From Mycobacteroides salmoniphilum (GTDB lineage: Bacteria > Actinomycetota > Actinomycetes > Mycobacteriales > Mycobacteriaceae), in NCBI RefSeq assembly GCF_004924335.1, contig NZ_CP024633.1, forward strand, positions 3,782,001-3,846,000: a stretch of DNA of 64,000 bases. The letters run 5' to 3'. The position numbers and the translations under genes are program-made. How positions within the stretch are numbered: the stretch's first letter is position 1; every line of letters starts with the position of its first letter. This document shows positions 1,416 to 3,478 of the stretch, piece after piece. The notes under the pieces are model-generated. The model was not told the origin of the DNA. It did not search any database and saw only the letters and a program-made list of their open reading frames with translations.

Positions 1416-1997
1416 CTAGGCGGCCCGATCGAGCAAACCAACCACAGCCTGGCGCAGTTCGTCGGCGGGCACCTGCTCGGTGATCACGGCCAGGGCCACG
1501 GGATCGCCGCCGCGCAGAATGCCCAGCATCATGTGCTCACACCCGATCCAGTTGTCTTTGTGCGCGATGGCTTCCCGCAGCGCCAGCTCCAGGCACTTCT
1601 TGGCCGAGGAATTGAACGGGATCATCCCAAACGGACGCCAACCGCGCACTCTGCCCTGACGACGCCCCGACTTTTCGAAGGCTTTGTCAAAGGCCTGCGG
1701 CCCAAAGACTTTCGACACACTCGCACGCACCTGGGACAGATCGATGCCGATGGCCTTGAGCGCCTGCGCGTCCTCATCGTCCAGCGGCGGCTCGTGGACC
1801 CCGGTGCGCAGCCGGTCACGCACAGTGTCGGCGGTCAGCCCGTACCCCGCCAGCAGCTCCGAAAGTGGTCCGCCCGCACTGTCGAGCACACCCACCAGAA
1901 CATGCTCGGCACCGATACGCGATTCGTCCATCTCGCGCGCTTCTTCCTGCGACAGCACCACGGCGACCTTGGCCGACTTCTGAAACTTCTCGAACAT
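1416..1997 (-). CDS. stand-alone double Clp_N domain protein (ClpC2/ClpC3-like)
   Basis: 193 residues with two Clp N-terminal repeats, about 2-64 and 126-190, and no AAA+ ATPase module, so it cannot unfold proteins itself. The first repeat begins MFEKFQ, like the ClpC1 N-domain. The second contains IPF at 126-128 followed by AKK and LxLRE. These match the ClpC1 residues I recall as contacting cyclomarin (Phe2, Phe80, Lys85, Glu89), here Phe2, Phe128, Lys133 and Glu137. Stand-alone Clp_N proteins in mycobacteria act as decoys or sponges for ClpC1-binding compounds and as adaptor-like proteins. It starts six bases after the HTH gene and is almost certainly co-transcribed with it. Confidence 0.85.
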   Translation of the reverse strand: MFEKFQKSAKVAVVLSQEEAREMDESRIGAEHVLVGVLDSAGGPLSELLAGYGLTADTVRDRLRTGVHEPPLDDEDAQALKAIGIDLSQVRASVSKVFGPQAFDKAFEKSGRRQGRVRGWRPFGMIPFNSSAKKCLELALREAIAHKDNWIGCEHMMLGILRGGDPVALAVITEQVPADELRQAVVGLLDRAA

Positions 1998-2003
1998 GGC
2001 TGC

Positions 2004-2225
2004 TCACTTCCTCGCGCGGTTGTATTTCTGATGCACTGCCTGACGGCTGACTTCGAGCGCCTCGGCGATGGCCTGCCAGCTCCAGCCCTGGCCGCGGGCG
2101 TTGGCGACATGGATCGCTTCCAGCCGTTCACACAGACGCCGCAGCGCCTGCACGGCCCGCAACCCCACCGCCGGATCGGTACTACTGACGGCGTCATCCA
2201 GGTCGGCCGTCGGGAGATCGCTCAT
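2004..2225 (-). CDS. small helix-turn-helix DNA-binding protein, probable autoregulator
   Basis: 73 residues if started at the ATG at 2225. The C-terminal half holds a clear helix-turn-helix (WSWQAIAEALEVSRQAVHQKY). A longer frame exists from 2261, but that start lies inside the -35 region of a strong promoter. From the ATG at 2225 the gene would be leaderless: a TAGATT -10 box ends 8 bases before the A of the ATG. Two tandem palindromes cover the promoter. It lies directly upstream of the Clp_N gene (6-bp gap), so it probably represses its own operon. Whether the Clp_N partner modulates DNA binding is inference. Confidence 0.82.
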   Translation of the reverse strand: MSDLPTADLDDAVSSTDPAVGLRAVQALRRLCERLEAIHVANARGQGWSWQAIAEALEVSRQAVHQKYNRARK

Positions 2226-2274
2226 GGATGTCAATCTATGTTGACATCCATGAGCTGTCAATAAAAGTTGACAG
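2224..2274 (-). promoter_or_regulatory. leaderless promoter with two tandem palindromic operators
   Basis: Operator 1 is a perfect 11-bp inverted repeat (2224-2234 and 2241-2251, 6-base centre). Operator 2 is a perfect 7-bp repeat, CTGTCAA-N6-TTGACAG (2255-2274). Both contain TGTCAA-N6-TTGACA and their centres are 27 bp apart. On the minus strand the -35 TTGACA is 2261-2256, the spacer is 17 bases and the -10 TAGATT is 2238-2233. Transcription is then predicted to begin at the ATG (2225). Each operator overlaps one promoter element. Confidence 0.85.
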
Positions 2275-2280
2275 TCGGGT

Positions 2281-3454
2281 CTACCAGCCGACGGGCAACT
2301 CGAGCAGGCCGCCGGTGAGCAGGTCCGTCCGCATCGTCAGTTCCGAGACCTCCTTGCGCAGGTAAAGCCCGGGTAGCCGCTCGACGAGCTGTCCAAGCAC
2401 CTCGGTGAGCTGCAACCGGGCCAGCGGTGCACCCACGCAATAACGCGCGCCGTACCCGAACGTGACGTGAGCCGCCGTATGCCGGGTGACATCCAGCCGG
2501 TCAGGCCCTCCGAATACCGCCTGATCGTGATTGGCCGCACCGACGTCCAGCAAGAGGAGGTCTCCGGCGGCGATACGCACCCCGTCGAGCTCGAGATCTT
2601 CGCGCGCGTATCGGGGGATCTCACCGCCACCCGTGCGCGAGGCACGCAACGTCTCTTCCACCGCGTTGGATATCAGATCTGGTTGTGCCACAAGCAAAGC
2701 CCACTGTTCGGGATTCGCCAGGAGCAGCAGGGCGGCCAGACCGAGCTGGACGACGGTGGTCTCGTGGCCCGCCAAGAAGCAATGCCATCGATTGCGAGGC
2801 GATCTCGTGGTCGGCAACACCCTCCACCGCACAGAGCCGGGAGATCACGTCATCGCCCGGATCCGCGCGCTTACGACCGACCAGTTGCATGCCGTAGACG
2901 AAAAGCTGCCCCATCCCCCACTCAGACAAGCTCCGATCGCGGGTATTCGATGCAGCCGTGGTCCATTCGCGAAACTCGGCCCTGTCCGCATACGGCACGC
3001 CGAGCAATTCGCACAACACCATCATCGGCAGCGGCTGGGCGATCGCGGTATACAAATCCGCGGGCGGCCCATGATCAATCATCGCGTCCAGCAGTTCGGA
3101 GGACAGCTCGTGCACACGGCTTTCCAACGCCCGCATCTGCTTTGGCGTGAAATGCGGTTGCATGAGACGCCGCCCCCGCGCGTGGTCGTCACGCTCGGTC
3201 TCATAGTTGCCGATCGGTCCGCCGAAAAATGCGGACTTACCGGACCGGGCAGCGGTATCGGGCGCGGGATGCGACCGGCCCACGCGATCGTCGTCGAACA
3301 ACTGCCGGACTGCCGCGTGTCCGGTGACTAGCCAGGCGGGGTCCCCGACGGCAGTGATCACACGGTGCACGGTCCCGGCACGCTGCAGCTCCCGCTGCAG
3401 GGGAGCTGGCGTGAACAATCCCTCACGAGCGAAGGGCAACTGCGGCGGTTGCAT
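2281..3454 (-). pseudogene. cytochrome P450, interrupted by a frameshift
   Basis: A bacterial class I P450 split over two frames. The 5' part (3454 to about 2775) carries the N-terminal half up to the I helix. The 3' part (about 2780 to 2281) carries the AGHETT oxygen-activation motif, the EETLR motif of the K helix and the haem-binding FGYGARYCVGA signature. The frame breaks between MALLL and AGHETT, where the coding strand reads CTTCTTGGCG; removing one T would restore a continuous protein of about 390 residues. The ATG at 3454 has a GGGGG stretch upstream and is preferred over a TTG at 3478. Inactivation or a sequencing error are both possible. It is divergent from the intact P450 at 3793. 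Confidence 0.85.
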
Positions 3455-3478
3455 GAAATTACTGACCCCCAGGATCAA

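What the first reader, a model, noticed from the sequence alone, without database searches (positions are those of the whole stretch)
2224..2274. Leaderless promoter built inside two tandem palindromes, serving an HTH + Clp_N pair
A -35 TTGACA, 17-base spacer, -10 TAGATT and an ATG eight bases later are all covered by two palindromes sharing TGTCAA-N6-TTGACA. Sites centred 27 bp apart each overlap one promoter box. This is the shape of a self-repressing switch. The downstream Clp_N protein has no ATPase, so the pair could sense ClpC1 state or ClpC1-binding compounds and derepress itself.
Basis: partly seen in the sequence, partly recalled or inferred. Interest (0 to 1): 0.72.

Follow-up and report, generated by a model that had tools for sequence, protein, structure and literature searches.

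The report
Split ClpC2-type self-repressing switch
A start-site switch with two mirror-image DNA boxes sits in front of a small DNA-binding protein and a protease-docking protein; it looks like a two-gene, widely conserved version of a known mycobacterial alarm that senses drugs attacking the ClpC1 protease, and it suggests which part of that alarm reads DNA.

Summary
On the minus strand, TTGACA (2256-2261), a 17-nt spacer, TAGATT (2233-2238) and ATG (2223-2225) are covered by two TGTCAA-N6-TTGACA palindromes 27 bp apart, the only two perfect matches in the 4.78-Mb genome. They precede a 73-aa HTH gene and a 193-aa Clp_N gene without ATPase. The unit is widespread: 109 of 109 homologous loci have at least one N6 site and 100 have two or more. 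It closely resembles ClpC2, a fused HTH+Clp_N autorepressor derepressed by cyclomarin (PMC10030653), and is probably the M. smegmatis MSMEG_3760-clpC3 pair, inferred from gene order. Three points appear new. First, pair operators are N6 and fused clpC2 operators N7 in the co-resident genomes tested (23 of 23 parsed, of 25 tried). Second, ClpC2's DNA-reading helix probably lies in residues 73-81, between its two crystallised fragments, rather than in the published C-terminal site. Third, the split Clp_N carries an insertion found almost only beside this HTH (88 of 90 places), a possible docking segment. Binding and ligand response of the pair itself are inferred, not shown.

The parts
2256..2273 (-). 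far operator, GTCAA-N6-TTGAC core (arms 2255-2261/2268-2274); its TTGACA half (2256-2261) is the -35 box
   Evidence: conserved
2229..2246 (-). near operator, GTCAA-N6-TTGAC core; its spacer and inner half carry the -10 box
   Evidence: conserved
2220..2255 (.). extended near palindrome, 15-bp perfect arms that include the start codon
2256..2261 (-). -35 box TTGACA
2233..2238 (-). -10 box TAGATT, 17-nt spacer, 7 nt before the ATG (leaderless start predicted)
   Evidence: pattern only, no mapped transcript
2004..2225 (-). 73-aa HTH protein (stop included), proposed repressor
   Evidence: homologous to the ClpC2 N-terminal domain
2016..2048 (-). proposed DNA-reading helix, residues 60-70 of the HTH protein
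   Evidence: by alignment to ClpC2 residues 73-81; inference
1416..1997 (-). 193-aa Clp_N protein (stop included), proposed ligand/substrate sensor and sponge; no ATPase
1677..1778 (-). insertion between the two Clp_N repeats (residues 74-107, DEDAQALKAIGIDL...FG), proposed HTH-docking segment
1998..2006 (-). TGA stop of the HTH gene and 6-nt gap to the Clp_N ATG (same frame here; gaps of -1 and -4 commonest among the 105 partners found)

Best explanation
This is a split (two-gene) member of the ClpC2 kind of switch. Proposed mechanism: the 73-aa HTH protein dimerises and reads GTCAA half-sites in the two N6 palindromes, covering -35 and -10 and shutting off a leaderless promoter that makes both proteins. 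The Clp_N protein, a ClpC1 N-domain look-alike without an ATPase, docks on the HTH protein, perhaps through its extra IGIDL segment. When Clp_N is occupied by a ClpC1-targeting peptide or by unfolded protein, repression is lifted, and the excess Clp_N soaks up the ligand and spares ClpC1. Shown by computation: anatomy, conservation, homology to ClpC2, N6/N7 separation, and insertion-HTH linkage. Shown in print for the homologue ClpC2 only: autorepression, operator binding, cyclomarin derepression, sponge function. Inferred: that this HTH binds these sites, that Clp_N signals to it in trans, and the ligand.
For: Two or more N6 sites are in 100 of 109 loci and at least one in 109 of 109; spacing 27/28/29 in 67/26/7 of those 100, which keeps the -35/-10 spacer at 17/18/19. 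A Clp_N ORF follows the HTH gene in 80 of 80 named loci by motif search (one of them, L126, is frame-broken). Neighbours differ among the eight loci whose flanks I scanned, so synteny does not explain the conservation. The HTH is homologous to the ClpC2 N-domain (hhalign P 1.2e-7, probability 94%). ClpC2 is an autorepressor with two operators over -35/-10, a probably leaderless transcript and cyclomarin derepression (PMC10030653). Cyclomarin-contact residues F2, F80 and E89 of ClpC1 correspond to window F2, F128 and E137, present in 88, 86 and 87 of 89 aligned (21 of 109 loci dropped there). The locus of G318 (mpg divergent; HTH-Clp_N; ABC ATPase; ABC-2 permease; TetR) matches the published order around MSMEG_3760-3765, where two palindromes lie at -47 and -19 of MSMEG_3760 (PMC5660060) and MSMEG_3761 is called clpC3 (PMC10454040). 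The TetR protein MSMEG_3765 does not bind that fragment (PMC5660060).
Against: No binding, transcript or ligand data exist for this pair. PMC5660060 reports MSMEG_3760 and MSMEG_3761 as monocistronic, which does not sit well with one operon if they are this pair. For ClpC2, arginines R185/R189 in the C-terminal domain affect DNA binding, so Clp_N may contact DNA. The AlphaFold model of the HTH protein runs residues 50-72 as one helix rather than a clear HTH, and fold searches gave nothing. The insertion's docking role is association only. In PMC12913811 (passages) all three compounds bound ClpC2 (ecumicin analogue weakly, 43.8 uM) but only the cyclomarin analogue induced it, which also conflicts with PMC10864484's 'comparable affinities' of ecumicin; the inducing ligand cannot be guessed safely.
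Confidence: 0.66

Rival explanations
1. The HTH protein represses by itself; Clp_N is only a co-expressed sponge. Derepression comes from turnover of the small HTH protein, for example when cyclomarin over-activates ClpC1, not from Clp_N signalling.
For: The HTH is a separate protein downstream of N6 sites in the loci examined. Cyclomarin is described as potentiating ClpC1 (PMC10746685).
Against: In ClpC2 cyclomarin weakens DNA binding in vitro without ClpC1. The insertion-bearing Clp_N is almost never away from the HTH (88 of 90), which suggests physical partnership.
Confidence: 0.2
2. Clp_N itself reads the operator, as published for the ClpC2 C-terminal domain, and the HTH protein only dimerises.
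For: ClpC2 R185A/R189A binds operator DNA less well (PMC10030653).
Against: R189 is not conserved in the split Clp_N (window A145; [quoted passage not shown] In M. smegmatis the N-domain change R57A raised clpC2 mRNA more (4.6-fold) than R188A/R192A (2.0-fold). The shared feature of the two systems with the same half-site is the HTH.
Confidence: 0.07
3. The palindromes belong to another regulator, such as a TetR protein, and the gene pair is incidental.
For: TTGAC-rich palindromes occur elsewhere: each of 7 Mycobacteroides genomes searched has a GTCAACA..TGTTGAC site away from the pair; in the window's genome it lies close to an ORF that reads like a TetR regulator by eye.
Against: The double N6 array goes with the pair in different neighbourhoods. 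The neighbouring TetR of M. smegmatis does not bind it (PMC5660060).
Confidence: 0.04
4. The pair is a toxin-antitoxin-like module, since the nearest natural PDB sequence match of the HTH is the antitoxin RelI.
For: Profile match of the HTH to RelI, E 0.0015 (designed helical proteins score alike).
Against: The partner is a Clp_N domain, not a RelE/ParE-like toxin. The RelI paper itself suggests that some RelI homologues emerged from ClpC2.
Confidence: 0.03

Closest known systems
ClpC2 (Rv2667 and its M. smegmatis orthologue), cyclomarin-sensing autorepressor (PMC10030653)
   Same: homologous HTH N-domain; Clp_N domain without ATPase; two GTCAA/TTGAC operators over -35 and -10; probably leaderless start
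   Different: fused in one protein; operator spacing N7 instead of N6; no IGIDL string in 12 ClpC2 loci; window Clp_N is nearer to the ClpC1 N-domain (best E 2.7e-22) than to ClpC2 (2.4e-9)
ClpC3 (MSMEG_3761) with MSMEG_3760
   Same: matching gene order and two palindromes at -47/-19
RelS-RelI toxin-antitoxin, RelI antitoxin (PMC13284704)
   Same: RelI carries a related HTH
   Different: partner is an RNase toxin; [quoted passage not shown]

Membership tests
ClpC2-type autoregulated ClpC1-mimic module | HTH domain of the ClpC2 N-domain family | tested here: met
   hhalign A1 vs A2, P 1.2e-7, probability 94%
ClpC2-type autoregulated ClpC1-mimic module | Clp_N double repeat without AAA modules | tested here: met
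   two Clp_N stretches only, 193 aa
ClpC2-type autoregulated ClpC1-mimic module | two palindromic operators overlapping -35 and -10 of a leaderless promoter | tested here: met
   (sequence level only)
ClpC2-type autoregulated ClpC1-mimic module | cyclomarin-contact residues (ClpC1 F2, F80, E89) | tested here: met
   window F2, F128, E137
ClpC2 proper (orthologue) | HTH and Clp_N fused in one polypeptide | tested here: not met
   two ORFs with a TGA between them; separate ORFs in 80 of 80 named loci by motif search
ClpC2 proper (orthologue) | operator CGTCAAC-N5-GTTGACG, that is N7 between GTCAA and TTGAC | tested here: not met
   N6 in the window and in the parsed pair loci, N7 at clpC2; among 109 pair loci one 9-of-10 N7 match, 190 nt upstream in L103
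ClpC3 (MSMEG_3761) | orthology to MSMEG_3761 | tested here: inconclusive
ClpC2-type autoregulated ClpC1-mimic module | autorepression, lifted by a Clp_N ligand | not testable with these tools
   needs binding and expression assays

The most novel reading that the evidence does not exclude
Actinobacteria run two parallel, insulated ClpC1-mimic alarms built from the same HTH and half-site: a fused one (ClpC2, N7 operators) and a split one (HTH + ClpC3-like Clp_N, N6 operators). A one-base change of spacing keeps them from cross-talking in the same cell. The split Clp_N signals to its HTH partner in trans through a dedicated docking insertion. In both, DNA is read by the HTH helix, which in ClpC2 fell between the two crystallised fragments, so the published C-terminal DNA site of ClpC2 would need revision.
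Probability: 0.45. Interest if true: 0.74.

Novelty: new variant of a known kind. Interest (0 to 1): 0.62.

Why it matters
ClpC1 is a drug target in mycobacteria, and ClpC2/ClpC3 proteins are reported to blunt compounds aimed at it (PMC10030653; PMC10914731, passage). Knowing that the split, probably ClpC3, protein comes with its own repressor and operators would make its induction directly testable. The split pair is a natural separation of domains that argues the HTH, not the Clp_N domain, reads DNA. The N6/N7 difference would be a clean case of one-base operator insulation between paralogues living in the same genomes.

Tried and rejected

I first thought that Gordonia/Williamsia-type partners had lost the second Clp_N repeat. 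Reading ten such partners (L085, L097, L101, L105, L107, L112, L116, L118, L119, L120) showed a diverged second repeat after a Gly/Arg-rich linker, so that idea was dropped. The script dropped 21 of 109 loci, including those types, because its motif required a canonical second repeat; the 89-sequence conservation counts are biased in that direction. The partner-finder missed 4 of 109: L077, L105 and L116 do carry the motif on reading, and L033 has a broken Clp_N frame. In one search the crude partner pick returned wrong frames for L017 and L020; both have the proper partner.

Mobile-element origin was considered: tblastn of the HTH finds 7 plasmid records (one an Agarilytica plasmid at 45%) and no phage record; not pursued. 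A wider regulon in the window's genome was looked for: only the two promoter sites are perfect TGTCAA-N6-TTGACA. The shorter GTCAA-N6-TTGAC has two more places (control 2). One of them has a look-alike in each of the 6 relatives searched; that these lie at the same place was not checked. The lone perfect N7 palindrome beside menC in the window's genome (1 perfect; 34 at up to one mismatch versus 9 in the control) might be a scar of a lost clpC2, but the alignment to relatives ends 25-34 bases before it, so this is left open. Absence of clpC2 in this genome rests. The flanking-motif scan for the M. smegmatis neighbourhood found an ABC motif in 1 of 38 loci (L189).

The extended arms of the near palindrome: column by column over 102 promoters the flanking complementarity exceeds shuffles only slightly (for example 0.64 against 0.54 next to the core; shuffle fractions 0.01 to 0.68 for the near site), so only a minority of loci carry the effect.

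Full report
What is there. Read from the sequence, the minus strand carries TTGACA (2261-2256), 17 nt, TAGATT (2238-2233), 7 nt, and ATG (2225-2223). Two palindromes TGTCAA-N6-TTGACA lie at 2229-2246 and 2256-2273, 27 bp start to start. The far one contributes the -35 box; the -10 box lies across the spacer and inner half of the near one. A pattern scan of 1300-2600 finds this promoter and no other. The two sites are the only perfect matches of the 12 specified bases in the 4.78-Mb genome. Downstream lie a 73-aa HTH gene (2004-2225) and, 6 nt further, a 193-aa protein with two Clp_N stretches and no ATPase (1416-1997). The two nearest named genomes in the scan are Mycobacteroides sp. CBMA 271 (HTH 96% identical) and Mycobacterium sp. 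D16R12 (97%) (the scan may leave out the window's own record).

Conservation. An HTH query over 251 family genomes matched 170 at E<=0.001, and a profile over 296 genomes of the class matched 174; both include weaker, more distant HTHs. A Clp_N ORF follows the HTH gene in 80 of 80 by motif search. Over those 80 plus 29 unnamed family loci (possible overlaps not removed), with a threshold of 9 of 10 core bases, 99 have two N6 sites, 1 has three and 9 have one (n = 109). The spacing of the last two sites is 27, 28 or 29 bp in 67, 26 and 7 of the 100 with at least two. Because the -35 and -10 boxes are parts of the two sites, this fixes the promoter spacer at 17-19. A TANNNT was found in the scanned near-site stretch in 79 of 100, and an ATG starts 0-4 nt after the site core in 86 of 100; the rest use other starts or were not resolved. 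In most of the nine one-site loci part of a half-site remains at the other position, by eye. Among the eight loci whose flank ORFs I scanned (seven, one) the families found are P450 and UbiA (L048), MFS (L051, L079), MerR and UbiA (L060), AAA (L069) and MPG/ABC/TetR (L265), with none for L054 and L058. UbiA recurs once; otherwise the neighbourhoods differ, so the promoter goes with the pair.

What it is related to. ClpC2 of mycobacteria is a fused protein whose C-terminal Clp_N domain binds cyclomarin A. It represses its own gene, binds CGTCAAC-n5-GTTGACG palindromes that overlap -35 and -10 of a probably leaderless promoter, is released by cyclomarin and then acts as a sponge (PMC10030653; I read the abstract, Results parts 1 and 3, and passages). 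Their N-domain profile aligns with the pair's HTH (44 columns, P 1.2e-7, probability 94%, 30% identity). The PDB chain 8ada has residues 1-72 only and stops at V72, and the other crystal construct is 94-252. The stretch equivalent to the pair's SRQAVHQKYNR, TKQAAQKRF at 73-81, therefore lies in neither. This suggests that the DNA-reading helix was outside both structures and that the published assignment of DNA binding to the C-terminal domain needs a second look. That an HTH exists in ClpC2 is already in print, from HHpred, in the RelI paper (PMC13284704, passages). In the split partners the published pair of arginines is not kept: R185 corresponds to R141 (89 of 89), which ClpC1 also has, and R189 corresponds to A145 (R in 13 of 89).

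Two operators, one base apart. In 39 of 198 genomes of the genus the pair's HTH is present at E<=1.1e-21; 35 of those 39 also have a ClpC2 N-domain (counted by eye). The window's genome is one of the four without. For 25 genomes with both I compared the promoters. The script parsed both in 23: the pair had an N6 site and no N7 in 23 of 23, and clpC2 had an N7 site and no N6 in 23 of 23 (six of the 23 pairs and one of the 23 clpC2 genes showed a single site). For the other two (G384, G262) the pair region was not parsed by that script but shows N6 sites, and clpC2 N7. Same half-site and same HTH family with different spacing suggests two insulated switches; binding was not tested.

A segment that goes with the split. 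The pair's Clp_N has an insertion between the repeats (window residues 74-107). D76 is D in 88 of 89, and A79, L80, G84, I85, D86, F98 and G99 are invariant in 89 of 89 aligned partners (21 of 109 loci were dropped there). In 21 diverse rows six positions (L, G, I, D, F, G) are invariant. The string IGIDL is absent from 12 ClpC2 loci, from the other stand-alone Clp_N of this genome and from 7 loci of full-length Clp ATPases. In 296 class genomes the profile matches 105 places; 15 weak ones (E 2e-4 to 5e-4) in frames of 841-937 aa, Clp-ATPase-like, were set aside. Of the remaining 90, 88 have the HTH 202-335 nt upstream on the same strand (HTH list limited to its 104 best places). Of those 104 HTH places, 16 lack the insertion downstream. 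I read this as a possible docking segment for the HTH, needed only when the two are separate chains; this is inference.

Link to ClpC3. In genome G318 the order is mpg (divergent), HTH, Clp_N, ABC ATPase, ABC-2 permease, TetR. This matches the published order around MSMEG_3760-3765, where two palindromes lie at -47 and -19 of MSMEG_3760, the promoter has a small but significant activity, and the neighbouring TetR neither regulates nor binds it (PMC5660060; sections 16 and 19 and passages). MSMEG_3761 is listed as clpC3 with 10.94 in the first column of the cold-shock table (PMC10454040, passages). Secondary sources say ClpC3 binds cyclomarin and ecumicin and is induced when ClpC1 is targeted (PMC10864484; PMC10746685; passages). 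The primary paper (Hoi et al. 2023) is not held and was not read. So the window's pair is probably the MSMEG_3760-clpC3 pair of this species. MSMEG_3760 occurs in one paper of the library, which does not name its regulator in what I read. Searches for Rv2667 with helix-turn-helix (0 papers), ClpC3 with mycobacteri (6 papers) and a five-term search (20 of 316 listed) showed no account of the HTH partner in their listings. PMC5660060 calls 3760 and 3761 monocistronic, which speaks against a simple operon there.

How it most likely works: see Best explanation. A side observation: the near palindrome has 15-bp arms that include the start codon. As RNA this stretch would fold at -30.7 kcal/mol with the AUG inside the stem (z -7.75), similarly in L049 (-29.4, z -6.46) but not in L048 (-19.1, z -1.86). 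Of 102 distinct promoters, 9 have at least 7 of 9 flanking pairs (at least one row, L171, was scored in the wrong orientation there and has full arms when read correctly, so the count is approximate). Several Mycobacteroides keep the arms with matched changes on both sides (window, L049/L170, L171), while L048/L169 and L172 do not. Over all promoters the column-wise excess over shuffles is small. A leaderless transcript would not contain this hairpin, but read-through RNA from the gene upstream would, so it could silence read-through translation. This is speculation.

Verdict.

Noticed in passing
window 2281-3478, minus strand: The cytochrome P450 just upstream of the pair is split over two overlapping frames (the C-terminal part matches p450, the N-terminal part has no Pfam match), while the homologue beside the pair in L048 is one 393-aa ORF: likely frame-broken or a sequence error.
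   Followed up: partly
window 2220-2255: 15-bp perfect arms around the near operator enclose the start codon; about 9 of 102 distinct promoters have at least 7 of 9 flanking pairs, with matched changes among some Mycobacteroides. Possible silencing hairpin in read-through RNA.
   Followed up: partly
G000:C1:3761985-3762001 (L198, L220): A lone perfect N7 palindrome (ClpC2-type) beside menC (named by eye) in a genome without clpC2; three relatives (L227-L229) carry clpC2 near menC. Possible scar of a lost gene, not proven.
   Followed up: partly
G000:C1:2647387-2647402 (L040): A further GTCAA-N6-TTGAC palindrome of the GTCAACA..TGTTGAC type; each of the 6 relatives searched has a look-alike (same place not checked). 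In this genome it lies at the start of an ORF that reads like a methyltransferase and near one that reads like TetR, both by eye.
   Followed up: partly
G000:C1:3337994-3338146 (L003): A second stand-alone Clp_N protein in the genome, 167-aa frame, no GTCAA/TTGAC palindrome in the 3.1-kb locus and no IGIDL string; no HTH partner seen by eye.
   Followed up: partly
one search list, for example G530:C49:57003, G442:C9:168463: 16 of the 104 best HTH places in the class have no insertion-bearing Clp_N downstream; other partners of this HTH may exist.
   Followed up: no
H6, NZ_CP021745.1:51488-51673: A relative of the HTH (45% identity) on a plasmid record of Agarilytica rhodophyticola, a marine bacterium outside Actinobacteria (taxonomy recalled).
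   Followed up: no
L033; L126: Two pair loci keep the HTH gene and two N6 sites but have a broken Clp_N frame.
   Followed up: no
L077: A contig labelled Acidobacteria MAG carries a mycobacterial-type pair; probably a mis-binned contig.
   Followed up: no
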